This document shows positions 9,307 through 25,209 of a DNA stretch of 64,000 bases, piece after piece. Source of the stretch: Thermovibrio ammonificans HB-1 (lineage in GTDB: Bacteria > Aquificota > Aquificia > Desulfurobacteriales > Desulfurobacteriaceae); contig NC_014926.1 of NCBI RefSeq assembly GCF_000185805.1, positions 1,072,418 through 1,136,417 on the forward strand. Direction: 5' to 3'. The notes beneath the pieces were generated by a model. That model was not told the origin of the DNA. It worked only from the letters and a program-made list of their open reading frames with translations, and did not search any database. Each line of letters starts with the position of its first letter. Position 1 is the stretch's first letter. Made by a program: the position numbers and the translations under genes.

Positions 9307-9702
9307 ATGGAAGAGCTTAAAGGTAAACTCGTGTTCATTCAAACAGCCGGAGGAGAAGCAGTTCCTACATCGGGGATTATCGGCGTTGTAGAAGAGATTA
9401 CCCCCGACTTTATCAAGCTGAAAGAGGCCGGCGTTTTCGCCCTCGTTCCCACAACAAAGGGGGCTCAGGCTACGATAATGCCGATGGACCCTACTGCAAA
9501 CGAACCGGTTGAAGCCTACCTCGTAAGGCAACAGGTGGCCGCCATCGTTCCCGTCGGCGACCGCTCAAGGCTTAAAGAGTTCCACCAGCAGTTCAAGGCG
9601 GCTGCGGCCGGAATAGAGCTTCCGAGCGCAGGAGCCCTCGAGCTCAACAAACTCAAAGAGTTCCAAAAGGGCGGTAACAACAAAGGAGGACTTCAGCTGT
9701 AG
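9307..9702 (+). CDS. Conserved small protein of unknown function
   Basis: 131 residues, soluble, not recognised. GGAGGAG is 6 bases upstream of the ATG. The first 80 residues have short beta-strand patterns (KLVFIQTAGG, SGIIGVVEEITPDFIKL, VAAIVPV) that could form a small SH3- or Sm-like barrel; the rest is Ala/Leu/Lys-rich and may be helical or disordered, ending in a Gly/Asn-rich tail. It is the last gene before a strong hairpin that contains its stop codon. Confidence 0.7.
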   Translation: MEELKGKLVFIQTAGGEAVPTSGIIGVVEEITPDFIKLKEAGVFALVPTTKGAQATIMPMDPTANEPVEAYLVRQQVAAIVPVGDRSRLKEFHQQFKAAAAGIELPSAGALELNKLKEFQKGGNNKGGLQL

Positions 9703-9731: not shown

Positions 9732-10736
9732 ATGGAGGCAGAAGACCTTCTCTTCTCCCTTCCCTTCCCGACCCTCCTGGTGAACGGAGAGGGGAAAGTA
9801 GAGAAAGTCAACCAAAAACTTGAGTTCCTATTAAACAAATCCGAGAAGTTCCTCCGGGGCAAAAGCCTAACCGAACTCTTCGATGAAGGGTACAAACTCC
9901 AGAAACAGGCCGAAAGGTCCTACACAGAAGAGATAGAAGTTGTAGGCTTTCCCTTTAAAGAGTTCTTCGTCCACTTCTCACCCCTGTTTGTCTCCTCGAG
10001 GAAAAAAGGCGTTGTTGTCCAGTTTGAACCCAGACCGGAAAACCCGTTCTCCGTAGACCCCAAACTGCTCCTGAGGGGGCTATCCCACGAGCTCAGGAAT
10101 CCCTTGGGAGGAATAAAAGGGGCCGCAAAGCTGTTCATGGAGCTTAAAAGCTACGACGAAGAACTCGCCCAAGTGATAGTTGAAGAGGTAGAGAGAATAG
10201 AGCGGCTGCTGAACGACATCTCAAAGGGCTTCGACTTCTCAAGGCCCACTTTCAAAAGGGAGAACATACACAAACTCATCCAGAAAACCTTAGACCTCTT
10301 CAAGGGAGAGCTTCTCTCGAAAAACATAGAAGTAAACTGCCTGTTCGACCCCTCACTGCCCGAAATTCCCCTCGACCCGGATAAAATACAGCAGGCACTG
10401 GTCAACCTTATAAAAAACGCCATAGAGGCCGTGGAAAGGTCGGAAAGGCGAGTGATAACAGTTGAAACAGGCTACGCCATACGGCCGGCAGATTTCATCT
10501 TCATAAAGGTAAAGGACACCGGGAAAGGCATGAGCCCGAATGAGCTCAAAAACTACGGGCAGCCCTTCTTCTCCTCAAAGGAGGAAGGTACGGGCCTTGG
10601 AACCTTCATAGTGAACGAAATAGTAAAGGGCCACGGCGGCCAGCTCAAAGTAAAAAGCGAGCCCGGAGTAGGAACGGAAGTAACCCTTTTAATCCCTATG
10701 AAGAGGAGAGATGGCGAAAATCCTCGTAGCAGATGA
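9732..10736 (+). CDS. NtrB-type sensor histidine kinase
   Basis: 334 residues without membrane segments: a PAS-like N-terminus (FPTLLVNGEGKVEKVNQKLEFLL), the HisKA box LLRGLSHELRNPLGGIKGA with phospho-acceptor His119, then an HATPase domain (N box NLIKNAIEAVERS, G1 DTGKGMSP, G2 GTGLGTFIVNEIV). Layout and H-box are those of NtrB/GlnL, a soluble kinase that phosphorylates a sigma-54 activator. The next gene, overlapping by 26 bases, is that activator. No glnA or glnB is near, so the signal may not be nitrogen. Confidence 0.9.
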   Translation: MEAEDLLFSLPFPTLLVNGEGKVEKVNQKLEFLLNKSEKFLRGKSLTELFDEGYKLQKQAERSYTEEIEVVGFPFKEFFVHFSPLFVSSRKKGVVVQFEPRPENPFSVDPKLLLRGLSHELRNPLGGIKGAAKLFMELKSYDEELAQVIVEEVERIERLLNDISKGFDFSRPTFKRENIHKLIQKTLDLFKGELLSKNIEVNCLFDPSLPEIPLDPDKIQQALVNLIKNAIEAVERSERRVITVETGYAIRPADFIFIKVKDTGKGMSPNELKNYGQPFFSSKEEGTGLGTFIVNEIVKGHGGQLKVKSEPGVGTEVTLLIPMKRRDGENPRSR

Positions 10737-12069
10737 CGAAAAAAGCATAAGGCTTGTTCTGAAAAAGTACTTAACCTCCAAAGGACACAGCGTGATAGAG
10801 GCCTCAAACGGCGAAGAGGCCCTGAAGGCTATAAGGGAGCAGAAACCCGACGTTGCCTTCATAGACATAAAAATGCCCAAGCTCGACGGCCTATCGCTCC
10901 TGAAGCGGGTAAAAGAGATTCCCGTTGTAATACTCACGGCCTACGGAACCATGGAGTACACCGTAAAAGCGATGGAGCTGGGGGCAGTAGACTACCTCAC
11001 AAAGCCATTCTCCTTTGAGGAGATAGAAGAGGTCCTCTCAAAAATACTTGCGGCACCGCCAACCGGCCAGGAGAGCGAGTCCGGCGGCGACATAGTGGGA
11101 AGCTCCAAGAAGATGCAAGAAGTGTTTAAGCTCGTAGGCAGGGTGGCAAAGAGCTCCATAACCGTTCTCATAACCGGAGAGAGCGGAACGGGAAAAGAAG
11201 TTATCGCAAGGGCAATCCACAACTTCTCCGACAGGAAGGAGAAACCCTTCATAGCCGTAAACTGTGCGGCACTCCCTCCGAACCTGCTGGAAGCCGAACT
11301 CTTCGGCTACGAAAAAGGGGCCTTTACCGGGGCCACAACCTCCAAAAAGGGGCTCTTTGAACAGGCAAACGGCGGAACGCTGTTCTTAGACGAAATAGGG
11401 GAGCTTCCGGTAGAGCTTCAGGCCAAGCTCCTCAGGGTCCTCCAGGAGAAAGAGGTTCGGCCCATCGGCGGAACAAAAAGCAGGAAAGTAGACGTTAGGG
11501 TCATAGCAGCAACAAACCGAGACCTTGAAGAGGAAGTCAAAAAGGGCAACTTCCGGGAAGACCTCTACTTCCGACTAAACGTTGTAAAGATAGAGCTTCC
11601 CCCCTTAAGGGAGCGCAGGGAAGACATCCTCCCCCTTGCCCACCACTTCATAAAGAAGTTCTCCGGCGAGTTCAAGTTAGAGCCGAAAGAGCTGAGCGAA
11701 GACGCAGTTGAGTTCCTCCTCTCCTACGACTTCCCGGGAAACGTAAGGGAGCTCGAGAACATGATTCTAAGGGCCATGGTCCTCTCATCCGGCAAAGTCA
11801 TAAGCCGCTCAGACCTTACCCCACAGGAAGGGAGAGGGCCGGAAAAGAGCATAGAGGAGGCCGTTCGCTCCATGCTCGTTAAACTGCTCTCGGTAGAGCA
11901 GAAAGAGCCCAACAACCTCTACAGCCTGATAGTGAAGTCGGCCGAGAAGGTGGTCATATCGGAGGTTTTGAAGTTCTGCAACTTCAACCAGGTTAAGGCG
12001 GCCAAAATCCTCGGAATCCACAGAAACACGCTACGGAAGAAGATAAGGGAGCTCGGAATAAAAGTTTGA
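10711..12069 (+). CDS. NtrC-family sigma-54-dependent response regulator
   Basis: 452 residues: receiver domain (LVADDE, Asp52 in FIDIKMP, Thr in VILTAYG, Lys in LTKPF), AAA+ domain with Walker A GESGTGKE, the sigma-54 contact loop GAFTGAT, Walker B GGTLFLDEIGEL and the arginine-finger region, and a C-terminal Fis-type HTH (NQVKAAKILGIHRNTLRKKIRELGI). It would activate RpoN promoters after phosphorylation by the kinase encoded upstream. Between AAA+ and HTH there is a 50-residue linker. The ferredoxin-like gene 86 bases downstream may be a target, but I see no clear GG-N10-GC element there. Confidence 0.92.
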   Translation: MAKILVADDEKSIRLVLKKYLTSKGHSVIEASNGEEALKAIREQKPDVAFIDIKMPKLDGLSLLKRVKEIPVVILTAYGTMEYTVKAMELGAVDYLTKPFSFEEIEEVLSKILAAPPTGQESESGGDIVGSSKKMQEVFKLVGRVAKSSITVLITGESGTGKEVIARAIHNFSDRKEKPFIAVNCAALPPNLLEAELFGYEKGAFTGATTSKKGLFEQANGGTLFLDEIGELPVELQAKLLRVLQEKEVRPIGGTKSRKVDVRVIAATNRDLEEEVKKGNFREDLYFRLNVVKIELPPLRERREDILPLAHHFIKKFSGEFKLEPKELSEDAVEFLLSYDFPGNVRELENMILRAMVLSSGKVISRSDLTPQEGRGPEKSIEEAVRSMLVKLLSVEQKEPNNLYSLIVKSAEKVVISEVLKFCNFNQVKAAKILGIHRNTLRKKIRELGIKV

Positions 12070-12124
12070 CATACATCAAACCTATAGAAGGCAAGGTAGA
12101 AATAGATTGAAGTTTGGGTATAAT
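12066..12124 (+). promoter_or_regulatory. Promoter region of the selenoferredoxin gene with Crp/Fnr-like box
   Basis: TATAAT at 12119-12124 is a good -10 box, 31 bases before the ATG at 12156, with no matching -35. Upstream, TTGAC-ATAC-ATCAA (12066-12079) differs by one base from the FNR consensus TTGAT-N4-ATCAA; its centre is about 58-60 bases upstream of the expected start point, a class I activator distance. The half-site ATACATCAA recurs at 12128-12136. Regulator identity is inferred. Confidence 0.5.
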
Positions 12125-12155: not shown

Positions 12156-12752
12156 ATGAAGGTTAAGTCCCTTGAACAGGTGAGGAACCAGGTAATCCTG
12201 AGCCAAGACGGCACCCCATTTGTGCCACAGTATCCCGGCGGTGTCAACTACTACAGGTGTACCGGCTGCGGAGAGTGTATAAAGGTCTGCCCCCAAGGGT
12301 GCATAGAGCTTCAGGAAGTAGAGGGGAAAAAGGTAGCGGTCCTCACGAATATAGAGCTGTGCATAGGGGACGGCTTCTGTAAAATCGTATGTCCCGAAGA
12401 CGCCTTCCTCTGAGGCCTCAACTGCTCCTCCGGTTCGGAGGAGGTAGAGGTAAACGAGGAAGAGCTCCTGTGCGACGAGCACGGAAACTACGCCTACCTT
12501 ACACTGGGGGGCATCCTGTATACCCCCAAGTACCTGGACTCAATAGACCACTCAAGGTGCCAAAACTGCGAGAAGTGTTTAGAGCTGTGTGAAACCAGGG
12601 GACTCAACGAGCTCGGCCAGGTTATCCCGGAGTTCCCCGAGGTCTGCTCCGGTTGCGGTCACTGTGGCAACATCTGCCCCGGAAAGAGCATAGTGGCAAA
12701 GCCGATTCCCCTGGAGGAGATGAAAAGGAGGGTAAGGGCAAGGAAAAGGTAA
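12156..12752 (+). CDS. Predicted selenocysteine-containing polyferredoxin (in-frame TGA = Sec86)
   Basis: The frame runs 198 codons, broken only by TGA at 12411-12413 (codon 86). Both sides encode iron-sulfur motifs: C35-x2-C38-x2-C41-x3-C45; C69-x2-D72-x2-C75-x3-C79, in which Asp replaces the second Cys as in Pyrococcus ferredoxin; then Sec86-x3-Cys90; and after a linker C135-x2-C138-x2-C141-x3-C145 and C164-x2-C167-x2-C170-x3-C174. Codon style is unchanged after the TGA, and a SECIS-like hairpin follows at the distance found in E. coli fdhF. The last cluster motif is followed by a basic tail (RRVRARKR). It lacks a signal peptide and is probably cytoplasmic electron transfer; the Sec/Cys pair suggests a redox-active or ligand role next to cluster 2. 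The alternative is a nonsense mutation. A good ribosome site is not evident before the ATG. Partner unknown; an NtrBC-type pair lies upstream. Confidence 0.8.
12414..12450 (+). promoter_or_regulatory. SECIS-like hairpin after the in-frame TGA
   Basis: Stem CTCCTCCG (12425-12432) pairs perfectly with CGGAGGAG (12436-12443); read as a 7-bp stem the loop is GGTTC. A lower helix CCTC (12416-12419) with GAGG (12447-12450) is possible, leaving an internal loop with an unpaired U. The GGU of the loop is at +19 to +21 from the UGA, the same place as the GGU recognised by SelB in E. coli fdhF (from memory). A bulged U close to the apex, needed in E. coli, is not obvious. Confidence 0.75.
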
Positions 12753-12754
12753 AA

Positions 12755-13648
12755 CTACCCGCAAACCTTGCCCTTTACGTTTAACACCTTCATAAGCCGG
12801 TCTATCTGAGGTCTCTTCTTTGCAAACTGTTCCAGCTTCAGAAGGGAGACCGGAGGCTGAGGCCGAACAACCAGCTCAAAGCAGGAGGGGTTGGCTATAA
12901 AGTCAATCAGTGCGTAGCCGAGCCTCCTGGCAAACTCCGGGTTTGCAGAGAAGCTGCCCCGTAAGGTCTTTACAAGTTCTGCCTTAACCTCCTGAGGAGA
13001 GAGACCCTCCTGACGGGCGGTGTAGCCTATAAAGCGGTTGAAGAAACCGTAGTCCCTGTAGCGAAGGTCGAGGAGCTTCAACTTTACACGAACGAGGGCA
13101 GAGGAGTAGGGAACCCGCCTCTCAAGGAGCTTCTCGGTGTAGTCCCTCGAGATGTTGTCGAGCTTAACCTCGCCGGTGAAGGCGGCAAGTCCCTTTACAA
13201 CAACGCCGCCGTTTACCGTCAGCTCTCTCCCATTAAAGGAGAAGCCGGCGGAGGTGTTCAGGTTCAAAAAGGGAGAAGAAAGGCCGGAAACGAGGGCGAG
13301 CTCTTTAACGAGGGGAAGGGAGGTGGGAACGTGAAGGCCGTAAACGGAGACCCTCGTAAAGGAGGGAACCCCCTTCTTCCTGAAATCGAAGGGCAGGTCT
13401 ATAACGACCTTATCGACCGTAATGTAGTTGCCGGCAAAACCCACCTTAAGGTCTTTCAGAACAAGGTCGTTGCCCAAGAGCTTGTAGCTGAAGCTCCCGT
13501 AGGAAACCGGGTAGGGAAGCCTTTCAAGACGCCTGTTGAGCTTCTGGGCAATCTTGTAGGTTACGTAAGACTGCAGTGCGTAGTAACCGCTAACGCAGGC
13601 CGCAACAAAGAGGGAAATCACGAGTAAAACAGAGCCCCACCTCTTCAC
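12755..13648 (-). CDS. Membrane-anchored envelope protein of unknown function (AsmA/DUF748-like architecture)
   Basis: 297 residues with an N-terminal membrane anchor (residues about 5-27) and a large exported part with repeating beta-strand phrases such as LVLKDLKVGFAGNYITVDKVVIDLPFDF, which recall the AsmA/TamB-like lipid-groove proteins. I do not recognise the family with certainty. Starts at a GTG that overlaps the hemE TGA and is the last gene of the long minus-strand run. Its stop lies 2 bases from the end of the convergent selenoferredoxin gene. Confidence 0.65.
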   Translation of the reverse strand: MKRWGSVLLVISLFVAACVSGYYALQSYVTYKIAQKLNRRLERLPYPVSYGSFSYKLLGNDLVLKDLKVGFAGNYITVDKVVIDLPFDFRKKGVPSFTRVSVYGLHVPTSLPLVKELALVSGLSSPFLNLNTSAGFSFNGRELTVNGGVVVKGLAAFTGEVKLDNISRDYTEKLLERRVPYSSALVRVKLKLLDLRYRDYGFFNRFIGYTARQEGLSPQEVKAELVKTLRGSFSANPEFARRLGYALIDFIANPSCFELVVRPQPPVSLLKLEQFAKKRPQIDRLMKVLNVKGKVCG

Positions 13649-22965: not shown

Positions 22966-25209
22966 ATGAGGTTAAAACTCTTCATAACAGGTGCCGTTCA
23001 GGGCGTCGGCTTCAGGCCCTTCATCTATAGGCTGGCAACCCAGATGGGCCTAAAAGGGTTCGTCTTAAACAGCGAAACGGGCGTTGTAATAGAGGTTGAA
23101 GGGGAGGAGGGGAAGCTCCGCAGCTTCATAGAACGGATAAAGCAGGAAAAGCCACCGGCGGCCAGAATCTACAGTATGGAGTTTAAGTTCCTGCCGGAGG
23201 TTGGTTATAGAGAGTTTCAGATAAAGAAGAGCCAAAAAAGCGGCGAAGTCCAGGTGGCGGTACTCCCCGACCTTGCCACCTGCCCCGACTGCCTCAGGGA
23301 GCTCTTTAACCCGCAAGACAGACGCTACCGCTATCCCTTTATAAACTGCACCAACTGCGGCCCCAGGTTCACAATCATCCTATCCCTCCCCTACGACAGG
23401 GAAAACACAACCATGAGAGAGTTCAAAATGTGTCCCGAGTGCCTAAAAGAGTACAGAGACCCGAAGAACAGGAGGTTCCACGCCCAGCCCAACGCCTGCC
23501 CCGCGTGCGGCCCCAAGGTGTGGCTGGTAGACGAAACCGGGCAAACCGTTGCAGAGGAAGACGAAGCGGTAAAAGAGGTCTGCAGGTGGATAACTCAGGG
23601 GAAGATAGTGGCCGTTAAAGGGCTCGGGGGATTTCACCTGATTTGCGACGCAACGAACGAAAAGGCCGTTAGAGAGCTTCGCCGGCGGAAAAACCGTGAA
23701 GAAAAACCCTTTGCCGTTATGTTCAAAGATTTAAACCAGCTGAAAGAGCACGCTTACCTGAGCCCGCTGGAGGAGATAGCCGTAACGGGCGTTGAGTCGC
23801 CGATAGTGATTCTCAGGAAGAAGAAGGGTTCTACCTTGGCCCCTTCGGTCTCTCCCGACACCGAAACGGTGGGGGCCTTCCTCCCGTACACTCCCCTCCA
23901 CCACCTTATATGCAGAGAGGTAAACAGACCCTTGGTTGCAACGAGCTGCAACATCACAGATGAGCCCATAATGAAGGAGAACAGCGAGGCAATCGAAGCG
24001 CTGGGCAGCCTGCTCGACGGAGCCCTGTGCCACAACAGACCGATTGCCAGAAGGTGCGACGACTCGGTTGTGAGGGTGATAGGAGATAGAGTAGTTCCCA
24101 TAAGGCGCTCAAGGGGCTACGCCCCTTTGCCGGTTCTGCTGCCGTTTAAGCTCAAGAGGGAGGTGCTTGCCATAGGGCCCCACATGAAGGTAACGGTGGC
24201 GGTGGGAAAGGGGAACAGAGTTTTCATCTCGCAACACGTGGGGGACACAGACAACCTGAAGGCCGAAGAGTTTCTGAAGGAGACGGTGGCCGATATGTTG
24301 AAGCTCTTTGAGTGTGAGCCCGAAGTGGTGGTGTGTGACCACCACCCCGGGTACTTCTCGACAAAACTGGCAAAAGAGCTCTTTAAAGACAGGGTGAAAC
24401 AGATTTACCACCACCACGCCCACGCCGTCTCTGTTATGGCCGAAAACGAAGTGCCCCTTAACGAAGAGATTGTTGCAGTTACCTTCGACGGCACCGGCCT
24501 GGGGCCCGACGGAACCGTATGGGGCGGAGAGGTTCTGAAAGCCGGATACACCGAGTTCGAAAGGCTGTTTCACCTCAAACAGTTCAAGCTCCCCGGAGGG
24601 GACAAAGCTGTAAAGGAGCCCTTCCGGTGCGCTGTTTCCCTGCTCTTAGAGCTGGGGGTAGAGCCCGGCGCATGGCTCAAGGGGCTCGAAAGGGAAGTAA
24701 GCCTTGTTAAACAGATGGTAGAGAAGGGAATAAACTCACCCACAACGAGCAGTATGGGGAGGCTCTTCGACGGAGTTGCCGCACTGCTCGGGATAAAACT
24801 GAAAGTCTCCTACCAGGCCCAGGGAGCCATCCTCCTCGAAGAGGCGGCCTCGGGATTCCACACCCAAGAGCACTACCCGGTAGTTTTAAGAGAGGGGGTT
24901 ATAGACTGGAGCGAAATGGTAGAAGCACTACTAAAAGACATAGAAAAAGGCGTAAGCGTTAACGAGGCTGCAGCCAAGTTCCACAACTGGGTGGTTGAGT
25001 CAACTGTTGAGGCCGTAAAGGAAGCCCTCTCGGCAGTTAACTGCCGAAAAGTAGGGCTCTCGGGCGGCGTTTTTCAGAACAGAATACTGACCGAGAAACT
25101 GAGCAGAAGGCTGAGAGAGGAGGGGATAACCGTTCTCACACACCAGATAGTTCCTCCGAACGACGGGGGAATCTGTCTCGGTCAGGCGGTTTACGGAGGT
25201 TTGGCGTGA
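22966..25209 (+). CDS. hypF: Hydrogenase maturation carbamoyltransferase HypF
   Basis: 747 residues, full length. Acylphosphatase domain (GAVQGVGFRPFIYRLA, 1-90), two zinc-finger pairs (C106/C109 with C128/C131; then CPECLKEY...CPACGP), YrdC-like domain (KGLGGFHLICDATNEKAV) and a Kae1-like carbamoyl-transfer domain (VCDHHPGYFSTKLA, HHHAHAVSVMAEN, VTFDGTGLGPDG). It makes the thiocarbamate on HypE that becomes the CN ligands of the NiFe site. The ATG at 22966 is fixed by AGGAGG 5 bases upstream; the frame stays open upstream only by chance over argS. It overlaps the next gene by GTGA. Confidence 0.97.
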   Translation: MRLKLFITGAVQGVGFRPFIYRLATQMGLKGFVLNSETGVVIEVEGEEGKLRSFIERIKQEKPPAARIYSMEFKFLPEVGYREFQIKKSQKSGEVQVAVLPDLATCPDCLRELFNPQDRRYRYPFINCTNCGPRFTIILSLPYDRENTTMREFKMCPECLKEYRDPKNRRFHAQPNACPACGPKVWLVDETGQTVAEEDEAVKEVCRWITQGKIVAVKGLGGFHLICDATNEKAVRELRRRKNREEKPFAVMFKDLNQLKEHAYLSPLEEIAVTGVESPIVILRKKKGSTLAPSVSPDTETVGAFLPYTPLHHLICREVNRPLVATSCNITDEPIMKENSEAIEALGSLLDGALCHNRPIARRCDDSVVRVIGDRVVPIRRSRGYAPLPVLLPFKLKREVLAIGPHMKVTVAVGKGNRVFISQHVGDTDNLKAEEFLKETVADMLKLFECEPEVVVCDHHPGYFSTKLAKELFKDRVKQIYHHHAHAVSVMAENEVPLNEEIVAVTFDGTGLGPDGTVWGGEVLKAGYTEFERLFHLKQFKLPGGDKAVKEPFRCAVSLLLELGVEPGAWLKGLEREVSLVKQMVEKGINSPTTSSMGRLFDGVAALLGIKLKVSYQAQGAILLEEAASGFHTQEHYPVVLREGVIDWSEMVEALLKDIEKGVSVNEAAAKFHNWVVESTVEAVKEALSAVNCRKVGLSGGVFQNRILTEKLSRRLREEGITVLTHQIVPPNDGGICLGQAVYGGLA

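What the first reader, a model, noticed from the sequence alone, without database searches (positions are those of the whole stretch)
12156..12752. New selenoprotein candidate: a polyferredoxin with Sec86
A single reading frame of 198 codons is interrupted only by TGA. Three CxxCxxCxxxC cluster motifs (one before, two after) plus a CxxDxxCxxxC motif straddle the TGA, and codon style does not change. A gene finder would report only an 85-residue ferredoxin and lose the other half. UGA encodes Sec86 four residues before Cys90, at the end of the Asp-ligated cluster motif. I know of no described ferredoxin selenoprotein of this form.
Basis: partly seen in the sequence, partly recalled or inferred. 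Interest (0 to 1): 0.93.

Follow-up and report, generated by a model that had tools for sequence, protein, structure and literature searches.

The report
New selenocysteine-containing polyferredoxin family
A heat-loving vent bacterium and nearly all of its close relatives carry a four-cluster iron-sulfur protein with selenocysteine, the rare 21st amino acid, at one fixed place; standard annotation would cut the gene in half there, and I found no earlier description of the family.

Summary
In detail: window 12156-12752 is one 198-codon frame interrupted only by TGA at codon 86. The Sec interpretation is strongly supported. All 19 homologous sequences (18 genomes, 6 of 7 genera of one bacterial family) have TGA at exactly this codon; none has a sense codon. 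Both halves are under purifying selection (pN/pS about 0.20 and 0.24). Synonymous divergence falls from about 0.8 to 0.4 only over codons 88-99, where a bacterial SECIS hairpin lies 15-18 nt after the UGA. The genome encodes tRNA-Sec, SelA, SelB and SelD. TGA is an ordinary stop elsewhere, and the second half has no start codon before about codon 181. The protein is a tandem duplication of a ferredoxin-III-like module: three four-Cys motifs, one Asp motif (CIGDGxCxxxCP), then U-x3-C. The nearest outside relative, a single module in a mercury-resistance operon, aligns a Cys to the Sec after a two-residue gap. No full-length relative was found outside the family. Ferredoxin-like selenoproteins exist (HgcB, an RnfB-like Fe-S protein, HdrA), so the kind is known; this family is not in the 2026 inventory of 119 families. 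What the protein does remains inferred.

The parts
12156..12752 (+). Selenoprotein gene: 198-residue polyferredoxin read through TGA (stop TAA)
12411..12413 (+). Sec codon TGA (U86), conserved in 19/19 homologues
12425..12443 (+). bSECIS apical hairpin CUCCUCC-GGUUC-GGAGGAG; loop starts 18 nt after UGA
   Evidence: synonymous-rate dip; pair counts
12258..12290 (+). CxxCxxCxxxC motif 1 (C35, C38, C41, C45)
12360..12392 (+). Asp motif C69xxD72xxC75xxxC79P; D72 invariant in 19 sequences
12423..12425 (+). Cys90, invariant; with Sec86 forms U-x3-C
12558..12590 (+). CxxCxxCxxxC motif 3 (C135-C145)
12645..12677 (+). CxxCxxCxxxC motif 4 (C164-C174)
12192..12407 (+). Module 1 of a tandem duplication (QDGxPFxPQY..., ferredoxin-III-like)
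   Evidence: hhalign probability 96, E 3.9e-9
12492..12692 (+). Module 2 of the tandem duplication (GNYAYLTxGGxLYTPxY...)
12119..12124 (+). TATAAT, possible -10 box; similar TATAxx stretches in many relatives
   Evidence: by eye only
12066..12079 (.). TTGAC-N4-ATCAA palindrome (CRP/FNR-like), recurs in many relatives
9732..10736 (+). Conserved upstream neighbour: histidine kinase
10711..12069 (+). Conserved upstream neighbour: NtrC-type sigma-54 response regulator
12755..13648 (-). Conserved downstream neighbour of unknown family, opposite strand
   Evidence: no family hit

Best explanation
The gene encodes a selenoprotein. UGA at codon 86 is read as selenocysteine by SelB and tRNA-Sec with the help of a bacterial SECIS hairpin 18 nt downstream. 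The product is a polyferredoxin made of two copies of a ferredoxin-III-like module, expected to hold four Fe-S clusters; one cluster of the first module uses a CxxDxxC motif, so it should be a site-differentiated [4Fe-4S] or a [3Fe-4S] cluster. Supported by sequence evidence: the frame, the TGA conservation, the SECIS, the Sec machinery, the duplication. Inferred: Sec86 lies beside the module-1 clusters and works with Cys90 as a redox-active selenol/thiol pair, taking electrons from the clusters to reduce a disulfide, a chalcogen compound or another soft electrophile in an anaerobic thermophile. About 0.95 for Sec; about 0.45 for the redox-pair mechanism. The confidence given below is for the selenoprotein claim.
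For: TGA at the same codon in 19/19 sequences from 18 genomes at 60-80% protein identity. pN/pS 0.197 upstream and 0.237 downstream; synonymous divergence about 0.8 along the gene but 0.39-0.47 over codons 88-99. The hairpin meets the published bSECIS model; 89.7% of cells paired against 39-65% in slid controls, 11 double-changed cells against 5.5 in shuffles. selD of the same genome has its own in-frame TGA and a GGUC-loop hairpin 17 nt behind it. tRNA-Sec 80.7 bits, SelB 423 bits, SelA 616 bits, SelD 365 bits. 29 ORFs of at least 120 codons in the window end in TGA, so the code is not reassigned. Cys90 and Asp72 are invariant. A distant homologue aligns AMTC with AFLU.
Against: No protein-level proof. 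No full-length Cys orthologue gives the usual Sec/Cys pair; the one distant pair needs a two-residue gap and stands alone. The hairpin is weak in L022 and L026; in L020, L025 and L026 the loop is 15 nt from the UGA by a 5-nt loop (16 by a 3-nt loop), at the edge of the 16-37 nt model. Two genomes with the gene show no tRNA-Sec. The AlphaFold model is poor (mean pLDDT 66), so the place of Sec86 relative to the clusters is not shown. Nothing tested bears directly on substrate or partner.
Confidence: 0.93

Rival explanations
1. Same selenoprotein, but Sec86 (or Cys90) is a ligand of the module-1 cluster that lacks a Cys at position 72, giving a selenolate-ligated Fe-S cluster that tunes potential or makes a reactive iron site.
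For: D72 replaces the second Cys and is invariant. In Sulfolobus-type ferredoxins the equivalent Asp is unbound beside a 3Fe cluster, in P. furiosus it is a ligand (PMC2946596). U86 is 7 residues past C79, at the end of a short predicted strand (84-86).
Against: Three Cys plus Asp already make a known cluster type, so Sec is not needed as a ligand. The low-confidence model gives no distances.
Confidence: 0.2
2. TGA is a true stop: an 85-residue ferredoxin followed by a decayed or separately translated second half.
For: Mechanical ORF calling gives the 85-aa ORF.
Against: The downstream half is under purifying selection in 19 sequences, with no in-frame start codon before about codon 181 (read). 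A decayed gene would not keep TGA and all the motifs.
Confidence: 0.02
3. UGA is read through at some level by a near-cognate tRNA, without Sec, helped by the hairpin.
For: A conserved hairpin could in principle promote readthrough.
Against: Loop and spacing fit the bSECIS model and the hairpin of this genome's selD. Sec machinery is present. The site is Cys in the L160 relative by alignment.
Confidence: 0.03
4. Sequencing error or nonsense mutation in this strain.
For: None found.
Against: The same codon in 18 separately assembled genomes.
Confidence: 0.005

Closest known systems
Ferredoxin III, nif-specific (TIGR02936)
   Same: Best named match of module 1 (64.7 bits), starting before the first cluster motif
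   Different: Below the cut-off of 80.55; nifH absent from all genomes that carry the gene, found only in two genomes without it; no Sec
Single-module ferredoxin of a Desulfobacterota mer operon (L160)
   Same: 49% identity over 67 residues with the CxGDxxC motif; a Cys aligns with Sec86 after a 2-residue gap
   Different: About 98 residues, one module, lies between a MerP-like gene and merA; Cys in place of Sec
HgcB mercury-methylation ferredoxin (NF040864; a Sec form is known)
   Same: Ferredoxin with a Sec form (motif GVGU, PMC13188914)
   Different: 34.2 bits against a cut-off of 99; no GVGU motif here
Fe-S cluster domain selenoprotein (NF005503/PRK07118)
   Same: Fe-S protein with Sec, motif UxxC (PMC13188914)
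   Different: Here U-x3-C; the model is not among the best 25 NCBIfam matches
HdrA, heterodisulfide reductase subunit A
   Same: Ferredoxin modules similar in sequence and predicted fold; Sec forms exist
   Different: Much larger protein; 31-37 bits against cut-offs of 1100-1400; Sec motif CxxU
TsoA selenoprotein (NF045695, LULAxC motif)
   Same: Same U-to-C spacing (U-x3-C) and a Leu before Sec, by the motif printed in PMC13188914
   Different: No NF045695 match to residues 79-134 of this protein even at E 10; likely coincidence

Membership tests
Bacterial selenoprotein | In-frame UGA conserved in homologues | tested here: met
   19/19
Bacterial selenoprotein | SECIS hairpin downstream, G in first two loop positions, 16-37 nt from UGA | tested here: met
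   two of 19 weak, three at the spacing edge (15 or 16 nt)
Bacterial selenoprotein | tRNA-Sec, SelA, SelB, SelD in the genome | tested here: met
Bacterial selenoprotein | Cys-containing homologue at the Sec site (usual, not obligatory) | tested here: inconclusive
   None full length; one distant single-module protein with Cys after a 2-residue gap
Bacterial selenoprotein | Selenium in the protein | not testable with these tools
   needs 75Se labelling or mass spectrometry
4Fe-4S polyferredoxin | Several CxxCxxCxxxC motifs and Fer4 domains | tested here: met
   Fer4 E 9.1e-17, 4 stretches; motifs
Ferredoxin III, nif-specific (TIGR02936) | Score over curated cut-off | tested here: not met
   64.7 against 80.55
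Ferredoxin III, nif-specific (TIGR02936) | Occurs with nitrogenase | tested here: not met
   no nifH in any genome with the gene
HgcB (NF040864) | Score over curated cut-off | tested here: not met
   34.2 against 99
HdrA | Score over curated cut-off | tested here: not met
   31-37 bits against 1100-1400; 198 aa

The most novel reading that the evidence does not exclude
A Sec-only protein family, spanning most of a bacterial family, in which a selenolate directly ligates an Asp-type Fe-S cluster: a natural selenolate-ligated ferredoxin, which to my knowledge has not been established.
Probability: 0.2. Interest if true: 0.88.

Novelty: new variant of a known kind. Interest (0 to 1): 0.62.

Why it matters
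It adds a well-supported selenoprotein family in an anaerobic vent lineage for which I found no published selenoproteome. The family would be hard to find by the Sec/Cys-pair method because no full-length Cys orthologue was seen. It places Sec in a plain Fe-S electron carrier, close in sequence to an Asp-type cluster, instead of in a thioredoxin fold or at a Mo, W or Ni site, so what selenium does beside an Fe-S cluster becomes testable in a small protein. It also corrects the annotation of this gene in the whole family.

Tried and rejected
Nitrogenase link: rejected, nifH never co-occurs. Obligate partnership with the upstream kinase/NtrC pair: rejected, the pair persists without the gene in the genus that lacks it, where leuC follows instead. 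Other phyla: no full-length relative in 136 genomes of the phylum, in 395 of a Desulfobacterota sample (only about 8 candidates per genome scored, E 1e-16), in 19 chosen genomes, or among plasmids and viral contigs. Fold: the AlphaFold model is too weak in the second half to place Sec, and Foldseek found general ferredoxin domains with no E below 0.001. The raw DNA alignment misaligned rows with shifted hairpins; I anchored on the loop instead, which leans toward the structure. A second long open stretch behind a TGA at 24111, minus strand, was taken as chance (no plausible protein, no hairpin). A link to TsoA by its U-x3-C spacing found no support.

Full report
Source. The two contigs are 76,561 and 1,682,965 bases, 1,759,526 in all. 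From memory these are the published sizes of Thermovibrio ammonificans HB-1; a paper on that organism also reports a Sec tRNA (PMC5441870). The named close homologue loci are Desulfurobacteriaceae, Thermovibrio and Desulfurobacterium.

Observation. The frame from 12156 to 12752 is open except for TGA at 12411. Three CxxCxxCxxxC motifs and one CxxDxxCxxxC motif are present; the Asp motif ends 7 residues before the TGA codon. Without readthrough only an 85-residue ORF is seen. Reading codon by codon, there is no in-frame ATG, GTG or TTG after the TGA until about codon 181, so the second half cannot be a separate gene of useful length.

Conservation. Of 24 genomes of the order, 18 have a full-length homologue, 19 sequences in all, each with TGA at the same codon. 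They fall in 6 of the 7 genera of the family. The seventh genus, g4, has tRNA-Sec and SelB but no copy of the gene; the sister family has no copy, no tRNA-Sec match and only SelB-like matches below the cut-off. Two genomes with the gene show no tRNA-Sec match (G008, G023), and SelB is below the cut-off in G006 and G008. G006 and G008 are fragmented; G023 is rated 99% complete, which I cannot explain.

Selection. Median pairwise pN/pS is 0.197 for codons 10-85 and 0.237 for 87-195. Synonymous divergence per 8-codon window is 0.66-1.1 everywhere except 0.39 (88-95) and 0.47 (92-99). Such a dip is what an RNA element inside the coding region would cause, and it sits on the predicted hairpin.

SECIS. 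The hairpin CUCCUCC-GGUUC-GGAGGAG starts its loop 18 nt after the UGA; in all 19 the loop reads [AG]G[UG]NN, at 18 nt or, in three, 15 nt. The model summarised in PMC13188914 asks for a G in the first two loop positions and 16-37 nt spacing. Anchored on the loop, 89.7% of cells pair against at most 65% when slid, with 11 cells changed on both sides against 5.5 in shuffles. In L020 the hairpin has moved 3 nt towards the UGA and is rebuilt with a swapped G-C pair. L022 and L026 are weak. selD of the same genome has an in-frame TGA followed at 17 nt by a GGUC loop.

Machinery and code. tRNA-Sec, SelA, SelB and SelD are all over their cut-offs in this genome. TGA ends 29 ORFs of at least 120 codons in the window (some may be spurious ORFs), so it is not reassigned.

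Anatomy. The two halves resemble each other beyond the cluster motifs (hhalign probability 96, E 3.9e-9), so the protein is a tandem duplication of a ferredoxin-III-like module. By the usual dicluster scheme (established knowledge of bacterial-type ferredoxins), C35/C38/C41/C79 and C45/C69/C75 with D72 serve two clusters of module 1, and the eight Cys of module 2 serve two more. C49, U86 and C90 are left over. C90 is invariant; C49 is Cys in 18 sequences and TGA in one. The Asp motif resembles that of archaeal ferredoxins with a 3Fe or an Asp-ligated 4Fe cluster (PMC2946596).

Surroundings. A histidine kinase and an NtrC-type regulator upstream, an unknown protein and hemE downstream, are kept in nearly all relatives, but the kinase/regulator pair also exists without the gene, so the partnership is not obligatory. 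A CRP/FNR-like palindrome precedes the gene here and in many relatives.

Outside relatives. One protein stands out: a single module of about 98 residues in a Desulfobacterota genome (L160; 49% identity over 67 residues), in a mer operon between a MerP-like gene of the NF041115 metal-binding (seleno)protein family and merA. MAFFT places its Cys (AMTC) on Sec86 (AFLU) after a two-residue gap. I take this as moderate support for a Cys/Sec pair and as a lead to soft-metal or chalcogen chemistry, no more.

Mechanism. An electron carrier with a selenol/thiol pair beside an open-site cluster is the most economical reading; direct ligation is the bolder one. Neither is shown.

Known or not. The 2026 inventory of 119 families (PMC13188914, Table 1) lists ferredoxin-like selenoproteins but none with this architecture and motif, and no NCBIfam model covers the protein over its cut-off among the 25 best matches. 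Paper searches for Thermovibrio or Desulfurobacterium with selenoprotein or selenocysteine, and for polyferredoxin with selenocysteine, gave nothing on this family. Subscription-only papers and preprints were not searchable, so an earlier prediction cannot be excluded.

Noticed in passing
L032:1492-2103 (second copy in genome G010): A second in-frame TGA at codon 49, where the 18 other sequences have Cys. No SECIS-like hairpin follows it (z 0.82); the copy has the same neighbours as L018, so the bin may mix two strains. Second Sec, mutation or assembly error not decided.
   Followed up: partly
window 12066-12079: Palindrome TTGAC-N4-ATCAA overlapping the stop of the NtrC gene; it or close variants recur in many relatives, and the pattern occurs at only six places in the genome, one near the start of a CO dehydrogenase-like gene. 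A CRP/FNR-family site is possible.
   Followed up: partly
L120, about 1484-2547: selD of this genome is itself a predicted selenoprotein gene with an in-frame TGA and a SECIS-like hairpin.
   Followed up: partly
L160: Desulfobacterota mer operon: MerT-like, NF041115-type MerP-like, a single-module CxGDxxC ferredoxin, and MerA.
   Followed up: partly
L146-L149: In the genus that lacks the gene, the kinase/NtrC pair is followed directly by leuC.
   Followed up: yes
window 9307-9702 and 12755-13648: Two conserved neighbours, a 131-aa and a 297-aa protein, match no Pfam or NCBIfam family.
   Followed up: no
genome G023 (same genus): Rated 99% complete and with SelB, but no tRNA-Sec match over the cut-off although it carries the TGA gene.
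   Followed up: no
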